DNA from: Favolaschia claudopus | Lineage: Eukaryota > Basidiomycota > Agaricomycetes > Agaricales > Mycenaceae | Assembly (NCBI GenBank): GCA_037176885.1 | Contig: JAWWNJ010000028.1 | Location: 1,302,001-1,366,000 of the forward strand | Direction of reading: 5' to 3' | DNA: 64,000 nucleotides | Shown here: positions 35,553-64,000 of the stretch, one piece after another | How positions within the stretch are numbered: position 1 is the first letter of the stretch | How the letters are laid out: each line of letters begins with the position of its first letter | Notes under the pieces: model-generated | Database searches by the model: none | Told to the model about the DNA's origin: nothing | The model's input: only the letters and a program-made list of their open reading frames with translations | Translations under genes and position numbers: made by a program

Positions 35553-35801
35553 TGTGTCTTCCTACTTATTACCTTTCGATGTGATGAGATAGTAGTAGAA
35601 GTTGTTTATTGCTACGTATGGGTATGCTTTCATAGGGATATAAATATTAATACAAGGAATACAAAATGAAGTTGACAAAGCAAAGAATTGGTGAAGAGCT
35701 GAACACCTAGGCTCTGTTTGTGATGCGAGAATGAGTGATGATGAACAAGGTGTGGCATTGAACTGATACTTACCTCCATTGCGACCATTACTCTAGCTAG
35801 G

Positions 35802-38800
35802 TTAAACATTTTCTGTGTTCCTCCCATTGGTAAATCCAAAGAGAGATGTGAATACTCTTTTCCATTTTCTTTGCTTTTTTGACTTTTGTGTGCATGTTTC
35901 ATGCAATGATTGCGCAACAGGGTTCTCAGACACTGTCCTTGGCAGGGCCAGCTCAGCCGGAGTGACAACAAATTTGTCTATTTGGGTGGGTTTGGAAGCT
36001 GCATCTCTAAGTTGCTCAATGTCTTGTGCAGCTTGCCTCAGTGCTTCGGCTTCAGAGTGACGCCCTTGGTGCTCAAAAACATATGCAAGGTTGTGCATGC
36101 TGTCCAAAGTGTTCGGATGCTCCTTGCCCAGCAATGTCTTTCTTTTCTCAAGCACCATGACATGAAGACTCTCAGCATCACTCAATCGGCCTTGATTGCT
36201 GTAAGTGCACGCAAGGTTGCTCATGCTAAGCAGAGTGTCTGGATGCTCTTCTCCCAGTAGCCTTTTCCTTGCCTCAAGGACTGTGACCTGAAGACCCTCA
36301 GCATCGCTCCATCGGCCTTGGTCGCTGTAAGTGCTTGCAAGGTTGCTCATGCTATTCAAAGTCTTTGGATGCTCTTCTCCCAGTAGCCTTTTCCTTGCCT
36401 CAAGGACTGTGACCTGAAGACCCTCAGCATCGCTCCATCGGCCTTGGTCGCTGTAAGTGCTTGCAAGGTTGCTCATGCTATTCAAAGTCTTTGGATGCTC
36501 TTCTCCCAGTAGCCTTTTCCTTGCCTCAAGCACGTTGACCTTGAGCTCCTCAGCATCGCTCCATCGGCCTTGGTCGCTGTAAGTGCTTGCAAGGTTGCTC
36601 ATGCTATTCAAAGTCTTTGGATGCTCTTCTCCCAGTAGCCTTTTCCTTGCCTCAAGCACGTTGACCTCAAGCTTCTCAGCATCGCTCCATCGGCCTTGGT
36701 CGCTGTACGTGCTTGCAAGGTTGCTCATGCTAAGCAGAGTGTCTGGATGCTCTTCTCCCAGTAGCCTTTTCCTTGCCTCAAGCACTTTGACCTCAAGCTC
36801 CTCAGCATCGCTCCATCGGCCTTGGTCGCTGTAAGTGCTTGCAAGGTTGCTCATGCTACTCAAAGTGTCGGGATGCTCTTCTCCCAGTAGCCTTTTGCTT
36901 GCCTCAAGCACTTTGACCCTGAGCTCCTCAGCATCAGTCCATCGGCCTTGGTGGCTGTACGTGCTTGTAAGGTTGCTCATGCTACTCAAACTGTCAGGAT
37001 GCTCCTCGCCCAGCAGCCTTTTCTGCTTCTCAAGCACAACACTGCAAAGGCCCTCAGCAGCACTCCATCGACCCTGGTTACCGTAGGTCAATGCAAGGTT
37101 GTTCATGCTGGTCAAAGTGCATGGATGCTCCTCCCCGAGCAGCCTTTTATCACTGTCAAGCACTGCAACCTGAAGAGCCTCAGCATCGCTCCATCGACCC
37201 TGTTGACTGTATGTCCAAGCAAGGTTGGCTATGCTGTTCAAAGTGCATGGATGCTCCTCCCCGAGCAGCCTTTTTTGGCTGTCAAGCACTGCGACCTGAA
37301 GAGCCTCAGCATTGCTCCATCGACCCTGTTTACTGTATGTCAATGCAAGGTTGGCTATGCTGGTCAAAGTGTATGGATGCTCCTCCCCCAGCCGCCTTTT
37401 ATGGCTGTCAAGCACTGCGACCTGAAGAGCCTCAGCATTGCTCCATCGACCCTGTTTACTGTATGTCCATGCAAGGCTGTCCATGCTGTTCAAACTGTCA
37501 GGATGCTCCTCACCCAGCAGCCTTTTCTGGCTGTCAAGCACTGTGACCTGAAGAGCCTCAGCATTGCTCCATTGACCCTGTTCACTGAATGTCCGTGCAA
37601 GGTTGGCTATGCTGGTCAAAGTGTGTGGATGCTCCTTCCCCAGCAGGCTTTTTCTTTTCTCAAACACTATGCTATGTAGTAACTCTGAATCATTCCACCG
37701 GCCTTGCCGATCAGCAATATATGCCAACCATATACTAATCTGGAGATCTATGGGCTTTCGGAAGAATAGTGACACTCTTGCCGTATGGTGCAAAAGTCTG
37801 GCTATATATTCAAAGTCTTCAGTATTAAAATAACATGACATGGCAATCAGTGCCAGCACACATGTTTGGATGAAGTGCATGTTCTGTTTGGTAGTATGAT
37901 TACTCCATTGTTGGATGAGGGGATGAACACTGAAAGACTGGTCATTCAAATCTTGTTCAATCAAGGAGTAAGCCTGAAGCTCTCCAACGATGTCATTGAA
38001 AATCAGGGCATTCCATGTTTGATTACTGCCCCCAAGTTGAGCTAACACTTCATCTATCTGAACCTGGAAATCACCATCATCTATTTCCAGTTCCGATAGA
38101 AAAGCCCTTTCAAATATTTCTGTTTTAATTCCCTGATGATGCAGGCAAGAAAAAATCTGCAACAGTAATTTTCCTTTCGAGCTAAGCTTGTTGTAACTTA
38201 GATTCCAGGTTGCATATACAGCTGTATTGTATTGGCTTTGCCCCTGTATATCATTGCGCTGCAACAGTTCATCTCGAGAACTTTGATAGATTGTCAAGTA
38301 GCTTTCAAGGTCACCACGAGCATTGATATATCCTCCTGCTTGAGACACAGCAAGAGGAAAACAATGGAGTTCCTTTTCTGCATTTCAGTTTCAAGTAGCT
38401 TATTCCTAGGATATAGACTACCTTGACGATGGCTGTGGCAAGTTCTTTCTTATTGTGTTGTATAGCTTTTCGGCCAACTATTTTCAAGAGCAGGTCTGAA
38501 GCATCATCTTGCGCCATATTTGATACTTGAGAGTCTACTCCATGAATGCAGAGTTGTGGGTTGCGAGTTGTGATCAAGATGCTACCGAATGTGCACGGAG
38601 GAAAGAATTTGGCAATGTCCAGTCCAACATCATCAGCATTGTCAAATACAATCAGCCATTCATTGTGGTTGCTTGCAAGCCAAGATAATGCTGCTTCTGA
38701 AGTATCATTAGCAGTGGGGGCAAGTAACTTCAAGTCTGTTTCTGCGGTCTGGTCACTGGTAGCATCAATAAAAAATACATTGCAGAACCTTTGAAGTATA

Positions 38801-46840: not shown

Positions 46841-49800
46841 ATGGATTTTCGTCCCGTTGATCCAACAACTTTCTTTGCTCAACCCACTCCACGGCCTAAA
46901 AAGCCCCCCCCTCCACCCCCAATTCCAGTTACCCCTGCAGGGCAACCTGCTTCAAATTCTACTTCTACAGCTTCGTCGAGCCAGCAACGGCTGTGTGCCC
47001 CTCGCAGAAGCAAATGGGAAAAAATGCACGACATTCTTGGCCATATCTCCAAGGATCTGGATGGCTTAGGCAACTTTCTCGAGCTGCTATTCTACCACCG
47101 GCCACATGGTACTAAAGACGTCCGGACGAGTCGACACAAAACAATGGTTACCCATTTTCTGCAGGGGCGAACAAATGTCAAAATGGGGCATATTATCGAG
47201 CTTATCTACCGTCATCGGCAAAGTCAACCACCGCCAACGTCTGCCGAGCGAGAGCTGGCATTTTCTAGTCGCATCCCTCACACCGACATTTGTCATGCCC
47301 GCCCTGCTCTCTCCGCATGGGCCTTGATTCTTGTTGGTCAAGAAGCGAGAAGGGAAATTGGGAGACTCACACAAAACGATCCTACCGATCCGACGGACAC
47401 TACGCAGCTGCGCGCTTCGACAAATGGACGGGTTCAGGATGCTGTTGTTGCCGACTGGGATACTCTGGCAGACAACATGAGCATTTCAAAAATTGCTGCT
47501 AAATACTCGAAACGCGGCACCGTACCTTGGTATCTTACCGAGATGATGTCTGCATCCAAGAAAGATGGTGTCATTGTAGTTCGACAAAGACGCCCGCACA
47601 CTACGGCAAGTAGTTCAACTCAAATGTGATATTTCTGCTCAACTAATTTCCAGATACAAGTTGGTGCTATCAGTAGCTTTATTCTGGCTCGGAATCGCTA
47701 CGCTAGCGGTTATCTCGCCCTTCCTCTTGCGGTATGGCAGTTTGCGTGCAAATCTCATGTTGATGAGAAGCGGATATTCAGCCGTTTTGGACTCACTGTG
47801 CATGACACGACCGCACGAGCATGTCTGGATTCACTGACTGATACGGGTTTAGAGAAAATGTGTCAATCAATTGCAGAGGGAATTGAGAGGGGCGAGATGC
47901 TCTGGCAGTATACCCTCGACAATGTCCAGCAATTTTGCCGTCAACGAGATCTTCGTCTCGGACGGCAAGATATTCTCAAGGTTGGCTGTGCCGCGACGGC
48001 AATCTTGCTCGAGGATTGCGCTCCGGGGGCTTTCAATCTGCAAGATCACCTCAATCGCATGGTGAAACAGGAGCGGAAGGAAATGACGACCGAGTCATTG
48101 TACTTGGATATCGACTGGGACTATATTCACGAATTAACCGCCTTACACTGGGTCCGCATTCTTGTCGAATTCCTCCCCCAGCTTGCGTTTCTCCGAAAAG
48201 ATGTTGAAGAGATCTTCCACTCAGAGAGAATGACCAAACGGCGCCTCCCCCCCGACGGTAAAACTGTTGTTCAACCTCTCGGAACGAATGCCGAGCGGGA
48301 AACAGAGACGCAAGGAATGATGCGGGCAATGCTCGATTTCGAGGCGCAAATGGGATTGGACGAGAAGGCCATGGAGGGTCTCATTATCACACCTCGAGGG
48401 GACGGCGCTTCGATTGCGGCAATGTGGCGCATTAAAAAATATCTCTCAGCACATCCGAACCACTACAAGGCTTTTCAAAATTGCGTACCTCCCGGCCCCG
48501 AAATCTGGCATACACGTTGGACTCAGCTCAATTCGATCTCAGCGAATTGCTATGGTGCCGCCTCTGCACAAGATCCTTTTGCATTATCGAAGAGTGCGAC
48601 TGCAGTAGGAGCAAAGCGGCCTAGCGACTTGAAAAAGGTTGATTTCTGGCCTGTTTCACGCAGCATGGCTCTGTTCTTTGAGGCTCGGGTGTTGGACTGC
48701 TGGCGGTACGAAGCACATTCTATTTGGCGTTCATGATTGTTAACTTGAGAGCATTTTCAGTATATTTTTCGGCGTTGAAGATCTCTTGACAGATTTCCCA
48801 ACATCGAACTCCCCTCTGCCTCGGATTGACACGTTGTTGTCGAATGCCAGTACTCTAGTGCGCCGCTACGCATCTCAAGACGCATATCATCAGGCTCTTG
48901 ACCGCGATTTTTATGACTCGTCAAGCTCGGAGATGCGTGTTCCACTGGGGACACCGTGGACGAAACCGATCGCCGAGCAGACTCTGAATTTGGAGCCGTC
49001 ATCTGGGGATCCAGGAGACGGCGATGAAGCCGCCGACGCCGCAGGCCATCTCGGGGAGTATATTGAACCGGGAGAGCAGGCCCCCGAAATTGCAAAATCA
49101 GATGAGGAGGAGGTGCCGAAGAAAAGGAAGAAGAAGAGCAAGTCGAAGAAGACGATCGATCATGTCGAAGCAGATGACTTCTCGGGAGATCACACTCTTG
49201 CGAACGAGTGCCTATTCTTGCAGGATATGGGTTGGTGGGTCATTGCAGCGCACGCTGTACCTGACGGAGAAGTCGGCCAGCTTTGAGAGATAATGAAGGT
49301 TTCAATCATAAAATTATTTCAACCTAAGTTCAGCTTACTTATAATTCGGCAGATTTGGATTTTCTGCTTCTCTGGATCGTCCAACCGCAATTACGCGAAC
49401 TATCTGCTCGAAACTTACTGCTTGCACCGGTATGAAGCATCTAGAGACTTTTCTGACGCGATGTTCAACAATTGGCTTGTTAACATGAGCGGAAAGAAAT
49501 ATACCGAATGTGATTATAACCAGGAGGACTTTAACAAATGGCTTGAAGAACTGGTAGAGCACCATGGGGGCGACTTCGACGATCATTTTTATCGACACAC
49601 CCTTGCTCCGAATGTCTTTCATTTCCTACGGTTCAAGGAGGAAATCGAGGAAGCTTTCGAATTGAAACGAAGGAGTAAAACGCACGGCGCCCCTCACCTA
49701 CGGAACGAGTTTCAACAACTGCTTCGTATGCACAAAGAAGACGAACTTCACCTCTTTCGGCCTCATCGAACGTATAACCAAGCAGCGATCAACCATCTAG

Positions 49801-50159
49801 GAACTGGGTATGAACGCTTGGAGGACGGACGCATGGACAAGTTTATCGAACAGAGCACGGCTTACTCGGATATCGTGATCAATGTTGTTCGACAATCTCG
49901 CACAGTCACTCCAGAACCACCAGATGCATTCGGCACGCAGGATCTAGAAGAGATGATTCGAGCGGGAGAGGAAGCAGATGAAGAGGATTCCGATGACGAT
50001 CCTGACGAATCAGAAGGGATGGAAATTCAAGGTCGTGCTACTGAAGTGGAGTCATCTGATGATGGCGAAGAGGAGGAAGATGAAGATGAGATTGAAGTAC
50101 AAACAGAGTCTGAGGAGGAGGAATATAGTACCGACGAAGAAGAGCAGAATACATTATAA
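46841..50159 (+). CDS. DUF6589 protein, probably with one nonsense codon
   Basis: It resembles the basidiomycete DUF6589 family, a large set of uncharacterised proteins. The ATG at 46841 starts a proline-rich leader, then RRSKWEKMHDILGHISKDL, KYSKRGTVPWYLTEMM, and, after an intron, SFILARNRYASGYLALPLAVW. The typical SRFGLTVHDTTARACLDSL block follows, then DIDWDYIHELTALHW, an acidic and Lys-rich linker, and a last exon with FCFSGSSNRNYANYLLE ending in a long acidic tail. The first intron (47606-47653) has a GC donor (GCAAGT). At 49284-49286 the frame reads GQL-TGA-EIMK just before a good donor, where a Trp-like codon would be expected; the gene is probably interrupted there unless an upstream donor (GTCGGC, 49272) is used. 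Its 3' end overlaps the helicase frame on the other strand. Function unknown. Confidence 0.75.
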
Positions 50160-51389
50160 TGCTAAATTTTCCTGATTCGCACGAACCCCCCCGTTTACGT
50201 GGGACATACTGCGGGCGGAATGATGCTGAGACCGCCGCCGCCTTCTCGAGCGGTACCCGAGAACGTTTGGCTTTGGGCTGCTCGTTAGTTGCGTCATCGA
50301 GCGCAGGGCGTTTGCGCGTAGTAGTCACCGGCCTCGCAGGCACAACCTGTGGCTGTTCTTCTGGCTCGCTAGGTGATCCCTCAAACTCTTCGTCCATGCC
50401 TTCTTCCTCCAAGCGTTCCTCCCGGCGCTTTGCCCGGGCCTTCGCGTTTTTTTCCAGCCGAGCAGCCTCGAATTCCGCTAAAAATGTGCCCTGTAGATTG
50501 TTAACAAGCAGGTACAGAGTCAGTCCATGGCGTTCGTAGTGCTTCCACTTTGGGATAATTAACTTGATGGTCTCGACAGTCGCGATGGCGAAGAATTGGT
50601 CGAGTATCGCGGATATGGTGGGGTTAGGGAAATATGACGAAGCGGGAGTGTAGCCGTGCGAGACGCGCTCGCGCTCTGCCTTATGGACTGTATCCCGGAA
50701 ACGACGCAGATCTGCATCTGCCCGAGCCCGCATTGCTTTGTTCAGTTTGTGGCCTGAATTTGGTGCGGAAGTGGAAACAGGTCGACGCGCTTGGTTCGCG
50801 GGTAAAAATAGAGGGGGAGGCAGAGCGCCGATGGGAAGAGAGGACGGAGGGAAGAATAAGGGGCCAACAAAACGTGGTAGACAATTGCTGCATGGCAGTT
50901 GACGTTCCGCCATAATGCAGTCGAGAAGCGCATTCTCGCCTGTGTTTCCGTAAGTTTTGTTGATGAAGGCGATGAGACAGGTCTTGATAGTGAGCATGAG
51001 GGCCTTATTAGTGCTCATTGCTGCCAGAGTTTTTGTGGCGTTGGTTTGCGTACGCCGTGCGGGTTCTTCAAATAATATGAACATCTCCATAGTTCAGTGG
51101 ATTAAGATCATACCTTGTGCGAGATATTTTTCGGCGGATTTATACGCCGAGTTCTGCGCAAAAACAACGGCACGGCCATTCGATGTTTGATCTCGAACTA
51201 CCCGACCGGCTTGCTGAAGTGTTTGGGCTAGAGTTTGGGGCACACCGAGCATGATGCTATCGAGTAAGACTCGAATATTGAAGCCTTGCCCAAATGCGAC
51301 GGTTGCGACAACAACTTGGCATCCGGGATCGTCCCGAATCAACCTAACGGTCTCCTCGTTGAAACGCTGCACTTGAATATATCGATATG
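50038..51389 (-). pseudogene. RecQ-like helicase, C-terminal fragment
   Basis: A minus-strand fragment of a superfamily-2 helicase. Its visible exon begins RFNEETVRLIRDDPG and continues CQVVVATVAFGQGFNI (motif V region), then LLDSIMLGVPQTLAQ and QQAGRVVRDQ (motif VI; canonical GRVGRD). A short intron after YLAQ leads to a RecQ-like cysteine set: CLIAFINKTYG, then LDC and LPCSNC. The C-terminus is basic with a KRKR-like patch and runs to a stop at 50038, overlapping the DUF6589 tail by about 120 bp. The DEAD-box half (motifs I-IV) should lie to the right of 51389 but is absent; retroelement-like sequence begins there. It probably lost its N-terminal half to that insertion, so no functional helicase is expected. 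Confidence 0.75.
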
Positions 51390-54035
51390 AGATGCAAGGT
51401 GCGCAATGGACTAATCCACTACAAAACACACAAACAACTCAACCAACACACACAACACTCCAACACTTATATATGTCTCAACAAGATACACCAAGTGCTT
51501 CCTATTGAGTTCGTGGGGTCCAATCCGAAATCCAGATGTAGTTCAACTTCGTCTACTGGTCTGAACTGACGCAAAACAAGTTCTTTACTGACTATAGTTT
51601 AGAGGAAATCCGTCCGCGGACTTTCCAATGAACAAGGTATATCGGTTTTTAGGATACAAGACTGGGAGGAACTCCGACAGTCAGGGCGAATTGAATATAG
51701 TAGACACCAGCCAATTGCTAGAAATGCCTCGTACACACACTTCTTACAGTGCCACTGCGACTGTAGACCTGAACTTCCAAGCTCTCAGGTACGTTTGACA
51801 CTCCTTTATATAGCACAAGCTCCAAGGCACTAATCGTATCCCGTCAGGTTACGTGCAGGCAAGTCTGAACACGATGCGTCCGCGGATAGATCGTCTACTC
51901 TCTTCAACTTGGGGAGATACTAGTTCACTCTTAAGCACACTTTCACTTCAACTGATTCTGAGTAGTCCGCGGGTTAAGTGGACCAGTCAAACACAACCCT
52001 GGTAAATGGGGGCGAGCAATGCTCAAACGGGCCAAGTCCTTGGAAGGTTACTGGGTTGGCTATGCCACGACAAAACTCCACAGTCCAAAGTTTCCGCGGG
52101 TGAACGCTTCTAGAAACTTAAGTCTTAATTCACACTTGTCTGAACTTCAACAAATCGTTCCTAATGAAGACAAAAACTAGCAAGCAGATAACTCCAATTT
52201 AAATGCCTCTACGTCCCTGCCTGAGTACACCAACGCCGTCAATGACCTGCGCGCGATGAACTAGACAAACGACGAGAAATACATGGTCTTTTATACTAAT
52301 GCCAAGAAAATACATGATGTAAACAAATCTGAGTCAAGATACAGAAACAATTGAGTTGGGATTGGGTATACGTAGGTCTAGCAGCCGTCTGCCGCTCTGA
52401 ATCGTCACGATCCGTCCATGAAAAGTCATCTATTCTGACCATCTCACGGTTGAATCACTATCTTGGTCATCCGCGGATGTGTATCACTGTTCCGCTCCGA
52501 CGTGTCTCCCCGGCACCCATGTAGATCCTCTGAATCATATGGTTGCTCCACTCCGTCTAGACCTTTCTAGATCTCTAGTTCTGTTTCCAGACCATCAGAT
52601 CACCGTCTAAGACATTCCTATGCTTCAGCGTCAAACTATCTCATCAGCGGCATACAGGAAAGTGCTTCCGTGATGTACATGCCGAGTCCGCGGAGTATCT
52701 TCCGTGACATGATGGATGTCCGCAATCACTGTTCCAGATCCGAGGCATCACCCTGCCGCTGATCCAACGTCCGGCACCCTTATGTTCAAGGTACATTGGT
52801 GCGGCAACTTGTCTGTAAGTCTTCGGCAGGTCCGCGGCGTCTATGTATCTCATAGACCTTTCGTTTGGATACTCCGCGGGCCTTCCTCCGACATTCCGTC
52901 TTGCTTTACTACAAGTCCAGACTGCACTTCAACTCAGTCTTCATCTGTTACTCTTGCAATACCTAAAACCTTGGGTTACTCCGTGTGCCGCGGGCCTCTA
53001 TGATTATCTCCAGTAACGTTACGACCAGCAGCTCGGAGCTCACTCTGATCCTCCTTCAAGTCACCATGAACAGGAGTACTGACTTCCTATTGATAGTCGA
53101 GTAAAGCCCTTAGTGCCATGCAGCTAATATGGGTATTTGTGCCACAAGTCACTACAAAAGCTAGATAAATACGCGCAAAATTGACCACGCGTATCATCTC
53201 CCCTTCACTAAATCTAGACCGTCCTCGGTCTACCATTTGTAGCCCTCAGTGTACTAGATATTGAGTGGTCCGCGGACTGACTGCGTCCGGCTAGACGTTC
53301 TAATTTTTATAGCGCCTACACACATGCACACTTTTTCACCATTTATTGGTTTTGAATCTGCAAGCAGAATTCAACCAAGTCCGTTGGTCCCAACTTGTGC
53401 TCAGCAAAATCTATTTTTAGACTTTTTGCTTCCACAGACGCCGATCATTACGTCATTGACATTTCCTGTCTGACTTTTATCAAGACAGGGGGTGTGCACT
53501 CAATCTGCACTCCTCCACTCAATTTTCTCCATAGTCGACAAATTTTTCGACTAACCCTAACCTTATACTCGCGATTTAACGCTTGGACCCTTGGGCGCTT
53601 CCCTGGTCCTTCAGAATCCTTATCTGCGCCTATCTAATCGTTTAGGCGCCGGCTCAATACAATCGTCGCCTTCTATCAAAAACAAGGTTTTGTCCAAGGT
53701 TCGCTGCGGAGAACCTCTTCCAAAGCTTGCTAATAATAGGTTGCTTCCGAGCCTTCCCTTATCGGGCCTCAGATAAGATCTGAATACAGTAGTCGCCGCG
53801 GCGGAGGGCTTCTAGCAAATTTTGCCTAAGTCCGCTCCGCCACATATACTGGCTGGGCTGGACTTAGAGCTAAATTCTCTCTCTTCCCTTTACCACCACC
53901 ACCACATATAGTGCTTTGCACTGTGTGGTCCCACTGCTTTTTGGATCCCTCTTCGTTGCTCGACGCCCACGTCGCTCAACGCATCAACCATTCCGACTGT
54001 CTTTCGACTCTCCCTGACGCTCGTCGTCGGCGGAG
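51390..54035. other. Left terminal region of the element, candidate LTR
   Basis: No coding sequence is seen in 2.6 kb. If Pol (minus) is the sense strand, this is the 3' end of the element and should include the 3' LTR. It contains ten of the CCGCGG sites, the telomere-like CTAACCCTAACC at 53551-53562, and a C/T tract at about 53873-53892 that reads as a purine tract on the Pol strand. Near its right end it must also hold the promoter of the first plus-strand gene. Confidence 0.45.
51468..51474 (-). promoter_or_regulatory. TATA-like box in the putative LTR
   Basis: On the minus strand the sequence reads ACATATATAAGTGTTGG. It sits about 80 bp from the point where helicase sequence resumes, the geometry expected for a U3/R promoter near the end of an LTR oriented like Pol. 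It is suggestive only. Confidence 0.3.
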
Positions 54036-55824
54036 ATGGCGTCTCCCACCAAATCTGCATCCAAGACGTCCGTTCCTGCAACGTCTCCGCGCGCACCAGC
54101 GTCTTCTTCGTCTAGTTCTGAGTCTGAAGACACCCGTCCCGCGCCTCTGGATTCAGACGTCTGCCGTCGACTCTCGAAGCTGCCTATCTCCCTTTCGGCG
54201 TCCGATCCTCGTGCCGAACATTGGGCTCCGTTTGATGTCGAGGCTGCTCGCAACTTCCACGAGCTCAACCACATTGACGAGCCGCCCATTTCCGACCAAG
54301 TTCAACGCATCAAGGCGTTCTATCCCATCATCGTACGTGGTATTATACCTTCTAATTGTCTAGGATATTAACCATTCTCCGTAGCGCGAATATCGTAAAC
54401 GCGAGAACATCCCTCCCGAAGTGGAGCTGTTCTTGTGGTCTTCTGCTCGTCTTATCCTAGGAGTGATCGAGGCGCTCTCCGCCGCCAAACTCAAAGTTTC
54501 CAACACCGTTCGCCTGGCTTACAACGCCGCGCGCCCTGCTCAGAGCTTCCGCTGCCAGTTTGATATGTCCGACCGTACTGTCAACGTGATCCCGGAGACG
54601 TTCCTTCTGCCAAAAATCGCTAAGAAGGTGGTCCGTGTGCGCAACGTTGCTGAGTCCGACGTTGAAGCTGACCCTCAGGGGACAGTTTCCGTTGTCGACT
54701 CTGACGCGCCTCTTGCTAAACGTCGCAAGTTGGAAGTGCATGTCGCGGTTCCATCTCGCTCCGCTCCCGCGCCGGCTGCGCCCTCGGAGCCTGTTGCTCC
54801 GCCCGTCGTTCCTGTCGCGCCCGTCGCTCCGATCCGTACCATCGCTATCACCAACCGCGACGAGCTGCTTGCCGTTTCTCTTTCCATGCCGAAGGGCGAT
54901 GCCCCTGCTCCAGCATTGATGCAGATTCCGCATCATTATGTTCAGGACTCTCTTAATCCTTCTCTGTACTCTGCCACAGCTTTCCCTTGTATTGAATGCG
55001 TCTCGCATCTCCGGCGTTGCCCCGGGATTGACGAAGCCACCCCGCGCGCAACGTCGTGTGCGCCTTGTGCTCAGACTCATAAGAAGTGTTCCTTAAACTG
55101 GCCGGCCAATAAACTCTCGAAGCTCATCGAACAACTCCGCCCTTATCAAAACTTGGCGCCGCAGACTATCGCCTCGTATCTTCAAAAGCTGTACCAGGCG
55201 ACTCTCGACTCGGAGCACACCGCCGCCTTGCACGCCCGCGCACTTAGCGCTCAACGTCTCGCTGCCCAGGATCTGGCCGTCGTCGTCCGTAATGCCGACA
55301 ACTCGTTGACGGATGCTGCGTTTCAGCAGATCTTTGAAGACCCAGCGGACGCCGTTCATTTGCGGGAAGTGGTGGACTCGTTCTTTGACCTGGAGCCTGA
55401 ATTCTTCGCCCAGGCGGCGTTCCTCTCGGACAATCCCACGTCCTCCGTCATCGCGCCCCCCGCTGGTTCGGCTGCAGGTACTCGCGGAACTTTCCATCCT
55501 GCTTTTTCCAACCGACGCCTTCCGCGCCCGCTTTTTGGAGAAGTCGACGCGTCTCTGCTTCCAGGAACCTTAACTGGTCCTTTGGAACGAGACCCCGCTC
55601 CTCACTTCGCTTCTGCGCCGTTGGCTCCCCCCGCGGTCTATGTTCCGCCGGCGTCTTCTGTCTCCGTCCTTCTGAACTCACCCCCCGCCCAACCGTCTTT
55701 TGGTCCTGCTGGGGTGATCAAACGCAGGAAGTCCAAACGACCTCCGTTTGTCGAGGGTAGTTCTAAGGATGGACAGGATGGGAAGGAACGTCGTCGTTCG
55801 CAGCGCAAGCATACGTCTCCCTGA
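54036..55824 (+). CDS. Element gene 1: Zn2Cys6-like protein, unknown function
   Basis: Two exons (54036-54332 and 54385-55824) join in frame to give 578 residues. A Ser-rich start (MASPTKSASKTSVP) is followed by a predicted helical region (SDQVQRIKAFYPII, REYRKRENIPPEVELFLWSS). Next come a Pro/Ala/Val-rich linker with a KRRK basic patch, then a cysteine cluster CIEC, RRCPG, SCAPC, KKC. Its spacing is C-x2-C-x6-C-x12-C-x2-C-x6-C, which matches the fungal Zn2Cys6 binuclear cluster, although that cluster usually sits at the N-terminus of transcription factors. A helical segment and a basic C-terminus (KRRKSKRPP, RRRSQRKH) follow. It could bind DNA or RNA of the element; that is inference. I do not recognise the family as a whole. 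It is the first of three plus-strand genes. Confidence 0.75.
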
Positions 55825-56880
55825 ACGCTTTCTTGTTTTTATATACGCATAACATACTTATACGCTGGACTCCTTGCGCGGTAGGCTGCCGCTTAGAAAG
55901 CCAAAAATATGTATATCTTGTATAGATCCCCGGGCTTGTTACATAGTCTAATTGCTTTAGATAGCCCATTCTGTAGACATGTAACCGCCCCCACCAATGT
56001 TACTAGCGCCAACGGCGCCAATTGCTGCTCTTCTGATTCAACCGTGTGAACCTCCTTCCTTATGAGAAATACCTTAGTGCTTAACTTAGCGCCAGAAATT
56101 AGCGCCGGCCTTAGCGCCTTGGCTTCTCGGACTCCGGCAACTCTTTCTTACCGGCCGATCATCGGATCGATCAAATATGATCCGATCACGGTGATCTCCG
56201 CTACTCAACTTTTTCAACCAAGTGCGAATTTTACCAAGTCCCAACTGCTTTTATAATCCAAATTGAGTCATCAGATGTCGATCCTCAATTCAAATTACTT
56301 GTTTCACAGTAGAACGGCTTCAACTTCTTAACTCTTTGCAGAATCCTGGTCCGCGGAGTTTCAGCTTCAACTTTTATTCAAGTAATGTAGTCTCATTGAA
56401 TCTTCAATTTCTTGCTAGTTCTCGCCACTTCATTTTCTGGTGAACTCCGGGGACTTGCCGTCTGACGCGTCTCCGCGGCCCTCCATCAATCAGTGTCGCA
56501 AGTCACTGCGTGTAGAAACCGATCATCAATATCCTCCCAATCAGGATTCCATGACTTCCGATTTTGAAAACATCGGCCTCAATCGCCTATTCTTGGTGAA
56601 ACAAATTTCTCCAAGCCTAGATATGGTAACAGACGCATGGACGCGCGGACGGCACACCGCCCATTCCGTGTCTTGGCTCCCTCTCTCCCCCCAACTAAAA
56701 TAAAACATGCGTCCTCGCATGCAGTTATATCAGCGAAAGAATTGAGTTGCCATGCGTCTTGGCGTGTTCCACCGATTTGCGCCTTTGTAACCAAGTTATC
56801 GTAACTCCCCGGACCTTTTGCACATAAAAGCCAGAGGTCCGCTCCGCTAAACTTCGTCTCGTTCTGACCACTTCCATGCA
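55825..56880. other. Spacer between element genes 1 and 2
   Basis: About 1.05 kb with no coding evidence. It carries several GGCGCC or AGCGCC words near 56010-56120 and CCGCGG at 56351 and 56473. CACATAAAAGCC near 56820, about 60 bp before the next ATG, is TATA-like. Confidence 0.4.
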
Positions 56881-58583
56881 ATGGCGCCTGACCGCCACCC
56901 TCCGCCTGCACTCCAGACAGCAATCCAAGGCATTCAAGCGGCTCACACTGAATATCGTGGTCTCCGAAAGGCGAAATTCTCGGATGCGATCTGCAACAGA
57001 GCGCTCGACACGGTGCTCGACCGCGTCGTACGTCCGCTATACTCTGCTACTCACTACTATGCTGACCCGCGGGGTTTCTTCCAGACCGGATTTCTCCCAA
57101 TGGCCTCCGCGCTCCAGCACCCCCAGAATGCTACCGTCACCCAGATCATTCTAGGACTCCCTGACCAGCTTCAACTCGCTGTCAACGAGCACGGCTTCCG
57201 CATTCCTAGCAGCCACAACGTTACGCTCAACCAGTTGATCAACCGCTACCACAATGCTAAGAAGAAAAAGAAGAAGGACGAAAAGGCCAAGGTATGCCCT
57301 CGTTATTTCATCCCTCTTTCTCAGCTTCTCTACTGACTTATCCCTTTCAGCACAAGTCCAAGGAGGCTGCCGAGGATACCGACGGTGACGACTCCGCGGA
57401 TGAGGCGTCTGTCGCTGACCAGGTATTCTCCAGGCGTTCTCCACATTACGATTCACTTTAATCGTCTACAGATGGACGTCGACAAGGAGGAAGGTATGAA
57501 TATTACTCCCTACTTGCTTGCCGCGTACGGGGCCAATTACCGTGCAGGTTCTGGCGCGGTCCCCGGAGGTCTTTCGTTCACCAAGACCAACGGTAACAAG
57601 AACAACAAGAAGAATAATTCCCGCGGAACGGTGCGCTCCGCTTTATTCCCTGTTTTCTTGTCCGTCCATCTTATTTTCATGGCAGATCAACGTGTGTGGG
57701 TCCTGTTCGTCGACTCAACACTCGATTGACATCTGCCCCGTCAAGCCCAAGGACTCCAAAATCTCCGAGGGTAAGGCGCACAAGAAACGCGATGCGTCAG
57801 TCGAAATCGTTGACGATCCGATTCCAGAGGATATGTTCCAAAACGTTTGTCGCACTGTTGTACGCTCCTCTTCCATGCATCTTACTCACTTGAAAATTTC
57901 TTCTCCTTCAGCGCAAGCTCAGAGCTCAGGCCGCCCAAGAGGAACAAGCCTTTCTCGACCAGGACGACTCGATGGTACGTAATCAACTTCTCACGGTTGA
58001 ATCACTCTAATACTCTCTTCGTATTAGGTGGAACCTCCCGCGGACCTTCAGGTGAGTCTAACTTTTCGTTATACGACTCCCCTTCACTGATTTCGACCCC
58101 AGCCTCCCGCGGAGATCTCTGATCCTGATGATGCCGCTCGTGGTCGCAAGCGTACTCGCCTGGCGGACGCGGCAGTCGATATGCTCCACGAACCCAACTT
58201 CCCGAGTACGTTTTAACGTCCTTTACTCCGCTATTCATCTCACTTGTACAACAGATCTTCATCATGATCTCATTGTCATCACGGACCCTGCGGTCATGGA
58301 CAAAGCGGTTCAAAACGCCAATATCCATGCTGAAGAAATGGATCCCCACGACTTTCGCACTCAGTCGGAGTTTCTTCGCCACAGCATGCGCTCCGCGGCC
58401 TTCAAGTTTCGCTTCTGGTTGTCGGAATACAATAAGTACGACGACCAGCTCGAGAAGCTTACATCGGACTTCTACCAGAAGTATCCTGATGACAGGCCTA
58501 TCCGTCGTCCGCACAGCGCGCATGGTGTACGCAATTTCGTTTTTGCGCACTGGTCCCTACCTAACGCGCCCTCGCAGCCTTAA
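56881..58583 (+). CDS. Element gene 2: Gag-like CCHC zinc-knuckle protein with seven introns
   Basis: Eight exons (56881-57291, 57351-57422, 57472-57630, 57686-57859, 57912-57974, 58028-58051, 58103-58205, 58255-58583) sum to an exact 445 codons. The first exon is predicted helical (FSDAICNRALDTVLDRVV) and ends in a lysine run. After an acidic exon, exon 4 carries CGSCSSTQHSIDIC, exactly the C-x2-C-x4-H-x4-C nucleocapsid knuckle. The C-terminal exon contains FRTQSEFLRHSMRSAAFKFRFW. Exons 2-6 are all multiples of three, so exon skipping would keep the frame. Gag-type RNA packaging is the natural guess, but a capsid fold is not evident. A spliced Gag-like gene opposite in strand to Pol is unusual. 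CCGCGG occurs in several exons. Confidence 0.78.
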
Positions 58584-59266
58584 ATCCTTAGCTAGGATTA
58601 TTTAGCTACAAGTTTCCGTTTCCTTTTATCGTTGTGTCTTCAACAGACACCTTGTGTCTTCAACAGACACATCTCCGCTGCTCAACCAGCAACCACAGTC
58701 TCTTATCAGCCCGGGCGTATCGTATCTTCAGTAGTGCTTGCAATACAATTGTTTTGCCAAGCCATTCCTGTGTGATTTCCCTTGCTTTCTTCAATTCTGA
58801 GAGTGAAACTCCGCTCCGCGGGGTGCCAAATCTCCGTTTCTGACTTTGAACAACCTCTCATTTCTTCGTCAAAAGAGCCGCGGGAGCCTTAGCGTCTTTA
58901 GCCTTCAATTGCTTACGCTGGTTGATTCCCTACATGCTCAAATTCTGAATGAATGATGGTCCTATCATCAACTTCAACTGACACTCCGTTCCAGGCTTAT
59001 CTGTTTCCTTCTCCGCAACGCTTGTCGTTCGTAGTGAGGGGTCCGCGGGCCTCAATTTCTCTACAAATTGGGTTTCTTTCCGCTGGATGCCATTCAAAAC
59101 GCTCCGACGGCACTGCGTTGAACCATTTAAGCTGTGATTGCTCAGTCAACCGATCGCAACTACACTCCTGAGTGTCCAAAGTGCTGGGTAATGTCTCAGC
59201 AGCCCTGTCTGACTTAAGGACAGCTGCGCGGAGCTTCCAAATCCCAAATACCCCTTCCGCTCTTTT
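58584..59266. other. Spacer between element genes 2 and 3
   Basis: No gene is seen. It contains the tandem hairpin repeat at 58632-58670, CCGCGG at about 58815, 58878 and 59043, and presumably the terminator of gene 2 and promoter of gene 3. Confidence 0.4.
58632..58670 (+). repeat. Tandem hairpin repeat in the 3' flank of gene 2
   Basis: Two direct copies of TTGTGTCTTCAACAGACAC lie back to back (20-bp period), starting about 50 bp after the gene 2 stop. Each copy contains GTGTCT and AGACAC separated by TCAAC, so each can form a perfect 6-bp stem with a 5-nt loop. Confidence 0.85.
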
Positions 59267-60123
59267 ATGTGCTGCGACCCATACGACGAGGAGAATCTAC
59301 CACCTGACTACGGCGACTACTACTACTCCACTCCTTCGCCTCATCCCGAGTGGGACGCTCCTTTCTTCCCCATGGATGAGATAGGCGCTCTTCGTAGCGT
59401 TTTTGGCTACAATTACGATGCATCCACCACTAGGGAGCCCAAGATTCTGGAGGTCCGCGAACGTCTCCGCTACACTCTTGCGTTCCTTGCGGATAACAAG
59501 GTGCGTTTCTGTTCTCTCCAAATCTCGCTCCTTACTCAGGGGAATTCTTCCAGCCTACTGCTGCTTGTTCTTGCTGCGAAGCGGAGCACGGTTCTAGGAC
59601 TTGTAATCCTCAGGCTTGGGGCGCTCCTTGCGATACTTGCCTCCGCAAGTTTCGCACTTGCCCTTTTACTGAGCAGAACAATATGTTCACCGTTTTCCAC
59701 GAGCGCGGTGGCCCTGGTACGTTTCCAAAAATCTCCGCGGAGTTTTATTCATTGCTGAATTCCCCCCCCAGTTATCATGTTTGGCAACGACAAGTTCCAC
59801 TTTGGTGAGCTCGCAGAAGAGTTCGACCTCGCTTTCTACTTCCTTCAGCGGGGAATCCGTTATCGTAAGGAGGGCTTCGTTCAAGCTCTCTCTCAGATCT
59901 CAGATGTTCACGAACTCGCCTACCTCCGCAAAGAACTCGACATCAACATGTACGACGACTCTGCTAAGGAGCTCGTCTTAGCTCGCATCACTGAACTCAT
60001 TCCTCCGGGGATCCATCCCAAGTCCGTGGAATCTCCCGACAAGTACGTCTTCGTTCCATATTTTCCAAGAAATATACTCATGATTATTTGTTCGGTAGGG
60101 GCAAATATGGCCACAATCTTTAA
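59267..60123 (+). CDS. Element gene 3: small Cys-cluster protein abutting Pol
   Basis: Four exons (59267-59504, 59540-59716, 59772-60042, 60099-60123) sum to an exact 237 codons, giving 236 residues. The N-terminus is acidic and Tyr-rich (MCCDPYDEENLPPDYGDYYY). The second exon carries CSCC, RTCNP, APCDTC and FRTC, spaced C-x2-C-x8-C-x8-C-x2-C-x6-C, a looser form of the cluster in gene 1. The rest is helical (FHFGELAEEFDLAFYFLQRG). The short final exon ends GKYGHNL with TAA at 60121-60123, immediately next to the Pol stop on the other strand. The first donor (GTTTCT) is weak but required by frame. Relation to gene 1 is suggested by the cysteine pattern only. Function unknown. Confidence 0.72.
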
Positions 60124-63100
60124 TCACTTTCTATTTCTCCTGGACCTCCGTGGGCCCACTCGTTCCTGTTCATCATCTAGTCCAAACGACTCTTCCTCCT
60201 CGCTTTCAGATTCAGATTGTGAAGATTCTGTATCCTCGAAGTCTTGGGGCGATACCCTGATGTTGACTTTGTCGAAGGCAATATCATTTAACTTCTTAGA
60301 CTTTTTATTCTTCTCTTCTGTACCCTCCGCGGGCTCGTCGTTTACTAGTTTTTCCAACGCCTCCGTAGAGATATCAATGAACTTTTGAATGTTCTTCGGA
60401 ATTTGGATTCGTTCCCTCGCTAAGTAAGGGACTACCCTTCCTGCAGCGATTCTGTCTTGGAATAAAGACCCATCCATCTCCGCAAGGATATACGCTCCTC
60501 CCTTGGTGCGTCTTATCACAACCATAGGTCCGAGGTACCTTCCTTTCTTTTCCATTTTCGAGTTCAATGATTTTTCTACCTCCGTGTGTCGCACCAGAAC
60601 TAAATCTCCCGGCTTAAAGTCATAGCCTTTGATCGCATGCTTATGGTTTCGTTCAAATTTCTGAACTGCCAATCGTTTTGCATGGTCAACACGCTCTCTC
60701 ATATATTCAACATGGGAGACATGCTTGGCTAGAGCTTGCGCACGGTATCCAATAAGCTCCGCAGTGGTCAACACTCGGTCTGGCAACTCCACTAACCACG
60801 TTGCTTCCTCAACATCCAATGGTAATATTGGATGCGCTCCTGTTACCACAAAATATGGTGAACACCCCAGACCCTTCCTTACTGTGACTCTGTCGGACCA
60901 AAGCATAACGTGGAAGAACCAGAACCATTTGGCTGGGTTCCCTCCAGTCGCCTTGAACAACGCTTGTCTCATTTGAAAGTGTCCAGATTCAATTTTGCCA
61001 TTAGCTTGCGAATTATAAGGCGAAATTTGAACATTGGCTATTCCATATTTCTGCCTCAACCACTCCACGGCTTTCTTGAACTGCCCCGCGTTGTCCGTTA
61101 CAATCCGCTTTGGGCAACCCCAACGGCAGATAATATCTTCAAACAGGAACATTCCAATCGCCTGAGCGGAATCCCTCACTAATGGTCTTCCTTCCAACCA
61201 AGAACTCAACGAGTCCCTTGCATCAACCACAAGTCCGCATTTATTTGAGACTTGTCCCATCACCATCACGTCGGTATGGATTACTTGGAAAAGACTTGGT
61301 GTATCCGTTACCACAGGCGGGACTTTGATCAAGGTGTGCTGCCTATTTTGGCAAGGTAGGCAAGTCGCCACATACCAATAAACGTCACACTCCAATCCTG
61401 GCCACCAGAATCTCAATGAAATTAACTCCGTAGTGGCATAACTTCCGCGATGACCTAGGCTATCATGAGCAGCCTTCATCATAAACATACGGTGTTCCTT
61501 GTCAACTACTAATTGATGAGCCATTCCAATCGCTTTTTTATACATCCTCCCCCCTTTCAAAAAGAAATGTGAGGCAGAGCGGACAAAAGCTCGATATTCT
61601 TGGTCGTCATTCATCCCCGCGGGCCTTATTAAAGGGTCCGCTAACCATTCCTTAATTAATGGTAACTTTGCGTCTCTCTTTTTCATCCACTCCGTGCGAT
61701 GCTCTTCATCATACGGCTCACGCTTATCTTTGTTCCACTTCAACTCTAAGTCAGGAATTAATGGTTCCATCATTAGAATATACTCTGGAACTGATTTTCC
61801 ATCCGTTTCATAGGCCGCTTGCCTTGCCTTTGCGATGTCTGCCTCCGCGGACGCAGCGAGCATACACTCCTCCGCGAAATCTTCAACACTCAACGCTTCA
61901 GGCTCCATTAGAAGGTAACCACCCCTTTTATCAATAAGGTGCTTAAACTCTTCAAATTCCAAGGGCTGTTGCCCGTCTGTTACAACATCTTCATGGTCCT
62001 CGGGAGGCTCATTCTGATCATAGCCTTCCTCGGAGTTTTTGAACTGTTCATCCCCGGGAAAAGGATCTCTCCTTGACAATCCATCGGGAGCGAACCTTTC
62101 GCCAGGAACATGCTTTAACTTAAAATGGAACATGAGAATTTTCTCAATCCAACGGTTTATTGTAGCATTTGGACCCATTCCAGGATTTTTCAACATGCCC
62201 TTGATGTACAACGCATCGGTTTCAACCACAAGCTTCCTTGCTCCGAAAATCCAGTAGTACATGGCTTCAAGAGCTCTCATCATCCCATACAATTCTCGTT
62301 TGGGTTGTGAGTAGTTTGCCTCGGTTTTCCCCAGCGTTATACTCGCAAACCGCGCATAGTATTTCTTCTTAGGGTCGTCTGGATCAAGCTGGTAGATAAT
62401 TATACCAATAGCTCGCCAAGATGTGTCCACTTGTAATACTATATCTGAAAGCCAATCGTATCTCAAAGGCTTGAGCGCGGGGCAATCCTTCAACCTCTGC
62501 CTAATCCTTGCCTGCGCCTCATCACACTCCGCGGTCCACTTAAAGACAATGTCTTTCTTGGTAAGATCATTGATAGGTGCGACTATGTCACCGTACCCTT
62601 CAATAAAGCTCCTCAAGACTCCAACAGTACCCAAGTATGCCTTTACTTGCGTAAAAGTATCGCAGGGGCCCCAATTGTTTATCACATCAATCCTTTTGGG
62701 ATCCGGCAGACGTCCGCGGTACGAACATAAATGTCCTACCACCTCAAACTCATCAGCGCAGAGCACCAACTTCTTCCCTGAGAACGTTCCACCAGCATAA
62801 TTCATGCGAGTAACAATACGGTTCAAATTTTGAACATGTTCCCACACAAATCGGCGAATGCCGGAGTTTTCTGGAATCCGTTCCCAATCTCCATCTCCCG
62901 TCTCATACCTCGTTGGACCTCCGCGGACCGGTACGTCGTCTATGTAAGGTATTGTAACATGCGGAATCTCATCTCTCAAGACATAGGTAACATCATCATG
63001 AAAGATAGGAACAGAATTTGTCCAACCCATGGGTAATTTAACTAGCCTCAGTGCGCCAAAGGGCGTCTGGAACGTAGTATAATCCCTGGAGGATTCTGCG

Positions 63101-64000
63101 AGATCCCTGTTATCATATCCAACGAACATGTCCAATGCAGCACCACAAGCTCTGCCAGCAAAATGTTCTGCTAGTTTCTCCGTACCCGGGGGCACTCCAG
63201 AGTGTTGAATGGTTACTTCATTGAGTCTCTCCAACGAATGTACGATCCGTAAAGATTTTCCATCCTTCTTGATGACAGCAAAAATCGGCGATCTGTAAGA
63301 CGAGTTCGAAGGTTCATATACGCCGGCATCAATTTTGGCTTTAATGATGCGACAGAACTCATCGAAATGTCCGGGGGGAATTGGAATTTGCGAGCATACC
63401 CACGGCGTATGAGGCGCCACAGGCATGTCCACGGGCGGAAAGAATTCATGTTTGAATTGTCCGCGCTCGTCTTCCTCCCAAGCAAAATGCTGATTATGCT
63501 CCATCATGAAGTGGTTCAACAATTTCATTTCTTCTGGCAATAAGAAGCCATTGTCATGAGTCTTGTCGAACACTTCCTTCCGCTCCGCGGTATATCTCCC
63601 AGTAGGTGCAAACTCTGGAGGATGCGGACTGATCGTCGGCATGTCCTTCAGCGGATCACCAGTGATATTCCGCACTATCCTAAACTTCTCATCAACTCGA
63701 CCTAAAATGGGCCTCACTTTGTCTGCCACGGGCTTATACTTGTTAGCAAACACCCGCTCTGGTTCAGGCTTGGGGTCAAGCTGCTCCATTACGAACTGCT
63801 GCCTGGGCGTATCAGGTACAGGCAAATCTAAGTGAACCACATTCTTAGGCGGTAGTCCGCGGACCGGATCAATCGGCTCCTCGGCACCACCTACTGCAAC
63901 ATTTGTTGACTCCGCCGTCAGAAGAGCCGCCTCCGCGCGCTTAGCCTTACGTTTGGCATTCTTCTTCTTTCCACGGTTCAACTTTTTCGACCGCTTCTTC
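60124..64000 (-). CDS. Ty3/Gypsy-type Pol (RT-RNase H-integrase), cut by window edge
   Basis: A single uninterrupted frame of 1,291 visible residues, open at the right edge; the real start lies outside. Order from the N-side: a Lys/Arg-rich segment, a region of about 170 residues, reverse transcriptase (FAVIKKDGKSLRIVHSLERL, LVKLPMGWTNS, catalytic YIDD in TIPYIDDVPV), and RNase H (VLQVDTSWRAIG, RELYGMMRALEA, VVETDALYIKG). Integrase follows, with the zinc domain HDSLGHRG and CLPCQ, then the catalytic triad in HTDVMV, IVTDNAGQF and NGKIESGHF; Asp and Glu are 34 residues apart by my count. A C-terminal GPY/F-like module (YLGPMVVIRRTKGGAYIL) precedes an acidic tail. No protease or chromodomain is visible. 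It lacks introns, unlike its plus-strand neighbours, and looks intact, so it may be recently active. Confidence 0.93.
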   Translation of the reverse strand, partial: KKRSKKLNRGKKKNAKRKAKRAEAALLTAESTNVAVGGAEEPIDPVRGLPPKNVVHLDLPVPDTPRQQFVMEQLDPKPEPERVFANKYKPVADKVRPILGRVDEKFRIVRNITGDPLKDMPTISPHPPEFAPTGRYTAERKEVFDKTHDNGFLLPEEMKLLNHFMMEHNQHFAWEEDERGQFKHEFFPPVDMPVAPHTPWVCSQIPIPPGHFDEFCRIIKAKIDAGVYEPSNSSYRSPIFAVIKKDGKSLRIVHSLERLNEVTIQHSGVPPGTEKLAEHFAGRACGAALDMFVGYDNRDLAESSRDYTTFQTPFGALRLVKLPMGWTNSVPIFHDDVTYVLRDEIPHVTIPYIDDVPVRGGPTRYETGDGDWERIPENSGIRRFVWEHVQNLNRIVTRMNYAGGTFSGKKLVLCADEFEVVGHLCSYRGRLPDPKRIDVINNWGPCDTFTQVKAYLGTVGVLRSFIEGYGDIVAPINDLTKKDIVFKWTAECDEAQARIRQRLKDCPALKPLRYDWLSDIVLQVDTSWRAIGIIIYQLDPDDPKKKYYARFASITLGKTEANYSQPKRELYGMMRALEAMYYWIFGARKLVVETDALYIKGMLKNPGMGPNATINRWIEKILMFHFKLKHVPGERFAPDGLSRRDPFPGDEQFKNSEEGYDQNEPPEDHEDVVTDGQQPLEFEEFKHLIDKRGGYLLMEPEALSVEDFAEECMLAASAEADIAKARQAAYETDGKSVPEYILMMEPLIPDLELKWNKDKREPYDEEHRTEWMKKRDAKLPLIKEWLADPLIRPAGMNDDQEYRAFVRSASHFFLKGGRMYKKAIGMAHQLVVDKEHRMFMMKAAHDSLGHRGSYATTELISLRFWWPGLECDVYWYVATCLPCQNRQHTLIKVPPVVTDTPSLFQVIHTDVMVMGQVSNKCGLVVDARDSLSSWLEGRPLVRDSAQAIGMFLFEDIICRWGCPKRIVTDNAGQFKKAVEWLRQKYGIANVQISPYNSQANGKIESGHFQMRQALFKATGGNPAKWFWFFHVMLWSDRVTVRKGLGCSPYFVVTGAHPILPLDVEEATWLVELPDRVLTTAELIGYRAQALAKHVSHVEYMRERVDHAKRLAVQKFERNHKHAIKGYDFKPGDLVLVRHTEVEKSLNSKMEKKGRYLGPMVVIRRTKGGAYILAEMDGSLFQDRIAAGRVVPYLARERIQIPKNIQKFIDISTEALEKLVNDEPAEGTEEKNKKSKKLNDIAFDKVNIRVSPQDFEDTESSQSESESEEEESFGLDDEQERVGPRRSRRNRK

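What the first reader, a model, noticed from the sequence alone, without database searches (positions are those of the whole stretch)
51390..64000. Possible ambisense retroelement: intron-bearing accessory genes antisense to an intact Pol
Three plus-strand genes with 1, 7 and 3 introns sit opposite an intact Ty3/Gypsy-type Pol on the minus strand. Their spliced lengths are exact multiples of three. Sense-strand introns would be removed during passage through genomic RNA. Introns survive retrotransposition only if the genes are antisense to the genomic transcript, which is the arrangement here. Some plant LTR elements carry antisense genes, but I know of no fungal element with three spliced antisense genes, one with a CCHC knuckle.
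Basis: partly seen in the sequence, partly recalled or inferred. Interest (0 to 1): 0.9.

Follow-up and report, generated by a model that had tools for sequence, protein, structure and literature searches.

The report
Mushroom retrotransposon with spliced antisense genes
An 18-kb "copy-and-paste" mobile element in a mushroom-type genome carries, besides its usual genes, three intron-bearing genes on the opposite strand, an arrangement that lets their introns survive the element's RNA stage; it is also peppered with one short DNA motif, a hint that it may recognise and control itself.

Summary
Confirmed and extended. Reading past the window edge shows a complete 18,022-bp Ty3/Gypsy-type LTR element (window coordinates 51360-69381). 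Its 1,837-bp LTRs are 100% identical, with a 4-bp target duplication and a tRNA-type primer site. Gag, protease and Pol lie on the minus strand in three frames, each overlap holding an in-phase G-GAT-TTT heptamer. Removing the element restores a helicase frame. Genes A (1 intron), B (7) and C (3) lie inside the LTRs on the opposite strand, tail-to-tail with Pol. In the same genome all 11 LTR pairs found carry A-, B-, C- and Pol-like matches in register. B and C matches run unbroken through their introns. A sister family (Pol DNA 76%) keeps all three C introns in place at 43-44% protein identity. So the introns most likely persist because the genes are antisense to the genomic RNA. New here: CCGCGG is about 13-fold above expectation across the element, also at synonymous sites of Pol and B, and at background in nine other retroelement regions; A keeps Zn2Cys6-type cysteine spacing yet exists as at least three very divergent allele classes on a nearly identical backbone. 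A self-recognition or anti-silencing role is inferred only. One antisense gene in a fungal element (Boty brtn) is already known.

The parts
51360..53196 (-). Left LTR (3' LTR of the element), 1,837 bp, TG...CA; the identical 5' LTR is at 67545-69381 (outside the window); element 51360-69381
   Evidence: 100% identical direct repeat; TSD TCGT at 51356-51359 and 69382-69385; empty site restores the helicase frame
53197..53206 (-). Polypurine tract beside the 3' LTR (GAAGGGGAGA on the minus strand)
   Evidence: sequence adjoining the LTR; function inferred from position
54036..55824 (+). Antisense gene A, 2 exons, 578 aa, six cysteines with CX2CX6CX12CX2CX6C spacing followed by a helix-rich stretch; very divergent between copies
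   Evidence: splice model; six cysteines invariant in five F. claudopus homologues and kept in two further allele classes
56881..58583 (+). Antisense gene B, 8 exons, 444 aa, CX2CX4HX4C knuckle
   Evidence: splice model; F. claudopus homologue (alignment); 35 of 41 listed matches in the genome span at least 1,699 of the 1,701 queried bases, introns included
59267..60123 (+). Antisense gene C, 4 exons, 230 aa, CX2CX8CX8CX2CX6C; stop codon abuts Pol's stop codon
   Evidence: 35 of 41 listed matches span 1-857; sister-family copy with the same 3 introns
60124..64000 (-). Pol (RT, RNase H, integrase); open frame 64293-60124 continues beyond the window
   Evidence: PF17919, PF17917, PF17921 above cut-off, PF00078 below it; 1,134 homologues. 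Protease 65642-64254 (PF13975 above cut-off) and Gag 67465-65603 lie outside the window
51614..63862 (.). Dispersed palindrome CCGCGG (most often TCCGCGG/CCGCGGA), 32 copies in the window, 50 in the whole element with both LTRs
   Evidence: 41 in 51360-67544 against 3.06 expected; synonymous shuffles; 39 of 40 sites kept in a second copy against 85% of all 6-mers
51094..51359 (-). 3' part of the interrupted helicase gene (continues right of 69385)
   Evidence: Helicase_C above cut-off; joined flanks give one open frame

Best explanation
This is a recently inserted, structurally complete, ambisense Ty3/Gypsy-type LTR retrotransposon of about 18.0 kb. The genomic strand (minus) is read from the right-hand LTR and encodes Gag, then protease, then Pol, probably joined by two -1 frameshifts (shown: frames, overlaps and heptamers; inferred: shifting). 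A polycistronic RNA starting at that LTR would contain genes A, B and C only as their complement, so their splice sites are not presented to the spliceosome and the introns are copied intact at each round (shown: introns retained across copies and across a diverged sister family; inferred: the RNA logic). A, B and C are conserved accessory genes expressed from their own promoters on the opposite strand and spliced (shown: spliced frames, selection pattern for B and C, conserved intron positions for C; inferred: expression). Most likely role: nuclear regulators of the element. My working mechanism is that A (zinc-cluster type), perhaps with C (another six-cysteine protein), reads the CCGCGG motif spread over LTR and body and so activates or de-silences its own copies, while B (zinc knuckle) handles element RNA. 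I give this functional part about 0.3; the stated confidence is for the structure and the intron-retention logic.
For: LTRs, TSD, PBS, PPT, empty site. Domains RNase H and integrase zinc finger above cut-off in Pol and aspartic protease above cut-off in PR. 11 LTR pairs each with A, B, C and Pol matches. B and C matches run through all introns (35 of 41 rows each). In the one other copy read, 10 of 10 B/C introns keep GT/GC-AG ends, B introns differ most (40/365) and C third codon positions (12/231) more than first and second (2/231, 1/231). Sister family: C's 3 introns identical in position and phase at 43-44% protein identity, and 40 of 40 listed copies span 850-852 bases. C abuts Pol exactly in 33 of 36 copies with both. 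Motif. A.
Against: No RNA or protein evidence. RT matches PF00078 only below its cut-off and the integrase core is not above cut-off. RNA folding 3' of the heptamers is no better than shuffles (z -0.36 and -0.10). For the proposed role of A: no Pfam zinc-cluster match; the solved-structure match to the AlcR zinc cluster is not significant (E 2.9, behind three unrelated hits); the structure model is poor (pLDDT 37); residues in the first half of the cluster differ between allele classes although the motif does not; A's own coding sequence is not enriched in the motif (1 observed, 1.01 expected). The second copy read has an imperfect target duplication (GTGT/GCGT), a frameshift in B, an insertion of about 1 kb in Gag and a nested insertion in A, so intact proteins were read in full only for the window copy.
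Confidence: 0.88

Rival explanations
1. A, B and C are ordinary host genes, or a nested second element, that happen to lie between the LTRs of this copy.
For: They have fungal-type introns, no domain known to Pfam above cut-off and an orientation opposite to Pol.
Against: All 11 LTR pairs seen carry them in register, C abuts Pol to the base in 33 of 36 copies, a sister family has C in the same place, and no LTR or inverted-repeat pair bounds them in the window copy.
Confidence: 0.02
2. The plus-strand transcripts matter, not their proteins: antisense RNA or double-stranded RNA tunes the element, and the reading frames are relics.
For: Tail-to-tail genes give overlapping 3' ends; antisense RNA as a regulator is discussed for plant elements (PMC7264820, passages).
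Against: Frames open across up to 8 exons, C's codon-position pattern, cysteines and intron phases kept at 43-44% protein identity, A's cluster kept in three allele classes.
Confidence: 0.06
3. The CCGCGG array is read by a host factor or acts in the RNA (palindromic contacts, packaging), and A, B and C do something else, for example interference with host silencing or RNA export.
For: The motif is also dense in gag-pro-pol and present in the same number in copies with different A alleles (50 and 52). The palindrome is equally present in the genomic RNA.
Against: Nine other retroelement regions of the same genome show 3-9 motifs per 20 kb, i.e. background, so a general host factor acting on retroelements is less likely.
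Confidence: 0.45
4. A's divergence reflects positive selection or hypermutation at one gene.
For: A is 65-85% identical in DNA between copies whose LTRs are 99% alike.
Against: Class I homologues differ by about as much in protein (82-88% identity) as class I matches do in DNA (83-85%), unlike what adaptive protein change alone would give, though it was not checked that these are the same copies. Flanks of A are diverged too (80% upstream, 75% in the first 256 bp downstream). Old alleles swapped by recombination fit better. No dN/dS was computed for A.
Confidence: 0.15

Closest known systems
Boty-like retrotransposons of Botrytis (antisense gene brtn; Zhao et al. 2011, not seen, cited in PMC7264820 and PMC8365987, of which I saw passages)
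   Same: Fungal Gypsy-type LTR element with an extra gene antisense to gag-pol between pol and the 3' LTR
   Different: One antisense gene; here three, with 11 introns in all. Whether brtn has introns I did not see; no sequence comparison was made
Plant Tat-type elements: Grande gene23, RIRE2, Retand (TRP28 antisense ORFs) (PMC7264820 passages and one section; PMC11963269 passages)
   Same: [quoted passage not shown] own promoter and nuclear protein reported for Grande; predicted DNA binding for TRP28
   Different: A, B and C show no TRP28 or other Pfam match; the word intron does not occur in either of those two papers' main texts; no dispersed palindrome is mentioned in the passages seen
HTLV-1 HBZ and HTLV-2 APH-2, spliced antisense regulators (PMC10186651, passages)
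   Same: Spliced antisense transcript of a reverse-transcribing element encoding a nuclear regulator
   Different: Starts in the 3' LTR and is a bZIP factor (HBZ); here three separate multi-exon genes with zinc-type cysteine motifs
VANDAL DNA transposons with VANC anti-silencing proteins in Arabidopsis (PMC5735166, passages)
   Same: Element-specific enrichment of one short motif, and an element-encoded protein with variable parts
   Different: DNA transposon; motif mainly in non-coding DNA and tandem repeats, whereas here it is also in coding DNA and not in tandem arrays; binding is shown there and not here

Membership tests
Ty3/Gypsy LTR retrotransposon | Identical or near-identical LTRs, TG...CA, with a target-site duplication | tested here: met
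   1,837-bp LTRs 100% identical, TSD TCGT, empty site in frame
Ty3/Gypsy LTR retrotransposon | Pol order RT - RNase H - integrase | tested here: met
   RT at 243-423 (below Pfam cut-off), RNase H at 488-622, integrase zinc-binding domain at 832-888 of the 1,291-aa window part
Ty3/Gypsy LTR retrotransposon | Gag with zinc knuckle and aspartic protease upstream of Pol | tested here: met
   PF13975 36.0 bits against a cut-off of 28.2; Gag knuckle CX2CX4HX4C read by eye, no Pfam gag match
Ty3/Gypsy LTR retrotransposon | tRNA primer site after the 5' LTR and polypurine tract before the 3' LTR | tested here: inconclusive
   TGGAGCCCACCGCGAGGGG 2 nt after the LTR, GAAGGGGAGA beside the other LTR; the 14-mer complement occurs 707 times in the genome against 1 for the reversed control; the priming tRNA was not identified
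[quoted passage not shown]
Plant Retand lineage | TRP28 (PF04195) domain in the antisense protein | tested here: not met
   no such match for A, B or C at E up to 1
Fungal Zn2Cys6 cluster proteins | CX2CX6CX5-12CX2CX6-8C (spacing rule recalled) | tested here: met
   A: 2,6,12,2,6 in class I and P0126, 2,6,11,2,6 in class II; class III 2,6,12,2,6 read by eye. C: 2,8,8,2,6, outside the rule
Fungal Zn2Cys6 cluster proteins | Match to the family profile | tested here: not met
   no zinc-cluster family in Pfam results at E up to 1
VANC-like anti-silencing system | Short motif enriched in the element and rare in other elements | tested here: met
   41 against 3.06 expected; 3-9 per 20 kb in nine other retroelement regions
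VANC-like anti-silencing system | Element-encoded protein binds the motif and removes silencing marks | not testable with these tools
   needs binding and methylation data

The most novel reading that the evidence does not exclude
A self-marking ambisense retrotransposon: it has accumulated a dispersed array of one palindrome, in coding and non-coding DNA alike, that is read by its own antisense-encoded zinc-cluster protein(s) A (and/or C) to activate or de-silence its copies, and the A gene is kept as several ancient interchangeable allele classes on one backbone, so that copies may compete or escape host control by swapping A. It would be the retrotransposon counterpart of the VANC system, made possible because antisense placement lets ordinary intron-bearing genes ride in a retroelement.
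Probability: 0.28. Interest if true: 0.9.

Novelty: new variant of a known kind. Interest (0 to 1): 0.76.

Why it matters
Introns are normally lost when a gene passes through RNA, so retroelements are expected to be intron-poor. This family shows a simple escape, placing the genes antisense to the genomic RNA, used for three genes with eleven introns and kept long enough for a sister family to share C's intron positions. That makes a general prediction testable in other genomes. The motif array and the swapped A alleles offer a concrete entry into a long-open question: what the antisense genes of LTR retrotransposons do.

Tried and rejected
Rejected: host genes or nested element as source of A, B and C. 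B as the element's only Gag (a separate Gag lies on the minus strand). A stable stem after the two heptamers as support for frameshifting (z -0.36 and -0.10; pseudoknots not tested). Structure of A by AlphaFold2 (pLDDT 37), so no fold search was made. Viral contigs: no match for the nearest homologue of Pol. Search of solved structures with A: nothing significant. My first impression that divergence stops exactly at A's reading frame was wrong: flanks are diverged too. The priming tRNA was not found. Literature on spliced antisense genes in fungal LTR elements: nothing found in the held library; titles and abstract starts only, except the papers named under Closest known systems.

Limits: genome DNA searches score only 40 candidates (LTR 40 of 428, B 40 of 109, C 40 of 41, Pol 40 of 302, sister C 40 of 81; A 17 of 17 and class II A 24 of 24). 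One C piece left out (C90:626879-627122) in fact abuts a Pol match then counted as lacking C.
Full report
What was checked. The gene models hold: A has one intron, B seven, C three, all GT-AG, and with the stop codon each spliced length is a multiple of three. Independent Favolaschia claudopus gene models of A have the same exon junction, and a F. claudopus homologue of B aligns across the second splice junction. The host is therefore probably F. claudopus or a near relative (Mycenaceae); this is inferred and not stated by any record.

The element. The window is G000:C28:1302001-1366000 of a 264.6-Mb assembly. Stretches to the right show a second copy of 51360-53196, identical over 1,837 bp, at 67545-69381, with TCGT on both outer sides. 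Joining the flanks with one TCGT gives an open helicase frame across the site. The minus strand holds Gag (open 67465-65603), protease (65642-64254; PF13975 and PF13650 above cut-off) and Pol (64293-60124; RNase H and integrase zinc domain above cut-off, RT below). Each neighbouring pair overlaps by 40 nt, the next frame being -1. In each overlap the heptamer G-GAT-TTT stands in phase; it occurs only three times on the minus strand of the element (phase read by eye). The MMTV pro-pol site is of this kind (recalled). No unusual fold follows either site. So A, B and C are inside the LTRs, opposite to gag-pro-pol, and C's stop codon touches Pol's.

Other copies. A DNA search with the LTR listed 41 full-length matches at 99-100% (40 of 428 candidates scored). 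Among them 11 pairs lie 18.0 kb (nine) or 20.5 kb (two) apart, and every pair contains one B, one C, one Pol and at least one A match in the expected orientation. B's genomic sequence with all introns is matched over at least 1,699 of 1,701 bases in 35 of 41 listed rows (92-100% identity), C's over 857 of 857 in 35 of 41 rows (84-100%). Of 40 Pol matches compared, 36 have C within 3 kb, 33 of them touching exactly. The remaining four are a C90 copy whose touching C piece I had left out, a Pol match lacking its 3' end (C161), a copy with C 8.8 kb away (C10) and the sister family on C15. The second copy read in full (C264, E2) has the same layout but is damaged: about 1 kb inserted in Gag, a nested insertion in A, one extra base in B exon 1, and imperfect outer repeats (GTGT/GCGT).

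Introns and selection. Between the two copies read, all 10 B and C introns keep GT or GC and AG ends. Differences are 13/446, 10/445 and 22/445 at B codon positions 1, 2 and 3 and 40/365 in B introns; 2/231, 1/231 and 12/231 in C and 3/164 in C introns. In a sister family (Pol DNA 76% identical) 1,061 bases were read. They hold C at 43% identity over 56 aa and 44% over 91 aa, with the same cysteine spacing, the same three intron positions and phases, the same eight-residue last exon (GKYGHNL against GAYHHNL after the shared K) and the same contact with Pol (intron phases read by eye). This family has at least 40 copies at 98-100%, all 40 listed rows spanning 850-852 bases (40 of 81 candidates scored). 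Two B-like fragments (74%) lie next to sister C copies on C22 and C58. Introns have thus passed through many rounds of retrotransposition.

The motif. CCGCGG occurs 49 times in the window, 32 of them from 51614 on. In the element less one LTR there are 41, against a mean of 3.06 and a maximum of 10 in 300 first-order Markov resamples. In synonymous-codon shuffles that keep protein and codon usage, Pol's window part has 8 against 0.84 (0 of 1,000 shuffles reach it) and B 6 against 1.89 (1 of 1,000); A (1 against 1.01) and C (0 against 0.03) show no excess. Ten other 20-kb regions around retroelement RT matches were read; nine have 3-9 motifs, the background level, and the tenth (14) turned out to hold part of copy E2. 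E2 has 52 motifs and its flanks almost none. Of 40 comparable motif sites, 39 are kept in E2, against 11,949 of 14,055 (85%) of all 6-mers and 262 of 308 (85%) of other 6-mers with two CpGs; by my own arithmetic the chance of at least 39 of 40 at 85% is about 0.01. TCCGCGGA is the site type of the yeast zinc-cluster factors Pdr1 and Pdr3 (recalled).

Gene A. A DNA search finds only eight full-length matches including itself, at 100, 85, 85, 85, 83, 79, 77 and 74%, plus weaker partial ones. A search with E2's A finds another set: C264 and C30 at 100%, eight at 93-94%, four copies at about 86-90% and nine at 64-67%. So at least three classes of A sit in the same place of elements whose LTRs are 99% alike. 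Between E1 and E2 A is 43-51% identical in protein, its flanks 75-80% in DNA, the rest 97%. The six cysteines keep Zn2Cys6-type spacing in all three classes. The residues of the first half of the cluster differ between classes (VSHLRR, AFNFLT, ANLFLP) while the second half stays basic, so a shared DNA target is possible but unproven. Pfam, the solved-structure search and the AlphaFold2 model give no support of their own.

Interpretation. Shown: a complete young ambisense element family with three conserved, intron-retaining antisense genes; a strong, element-specific motif array partly maintained at synonymous sites; old allele classes of A on a young backbone. Inferred: expression and splicing of A, B and C; -1 frameshifting; self-recognition of the motif by A or C, in the manner of VANC proteins that bind dense motifs in VANDAL transposons (PMC5735166, passages), or of nuclear antisense regulators such as HBZ (PMC10186651, passages). 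Antisense genes in LTR elements are known in plants and, singly, in Boty (PMC7264820, PMC8365987, PMC11963269; passages). I therefore call it a new variant of a known kind.

Noticed in passing
window 3717-7036 and 33547-36912; tandem repeats 3718-4537 and 36084-37668: Inverted duplication of about 3.4 kb at 83% identity that includes 126-bp tandem repeats; the unit reads like a TPR repeat (by eye).
   Followed up: no
window 49293-50159: Fragment of a DUF6589 gene (E 1.6e-34) next to the helicase gene that the element interrupts.
   Followed up: no
genome G000; primer site at window coordinate about 67542 and leftwards, minus strand: The complement of the primer site (14-mer) occurs 707 times in the assembly against once for the reversed control, so hundreds of elements probably share this primer site, the sister family on C15 among them.
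   Followed up: partly
G000:C264:49369-69901 and G000:C30:1942322-1962845: Both 20.5-kb copies share an A fragment at 100% identity and nearly the same length; C264 has a nested insertion in A and one in Gag. They may descend from one already interrupted copy that still moved, or from a segmental duplication; C30 was not read.
   Followed up: no
L035/L021 junction region, copy E2 gene A: The nested insertion in E2's gene A is bounded by identical 152-bp direct repeats, which also occur elsewhere on C264.
   Followed up: no
window 58632-58670: Perfect tandem pair of a 20-bp unit between genes B and C, shortened in copy E2.
   Followed up: no
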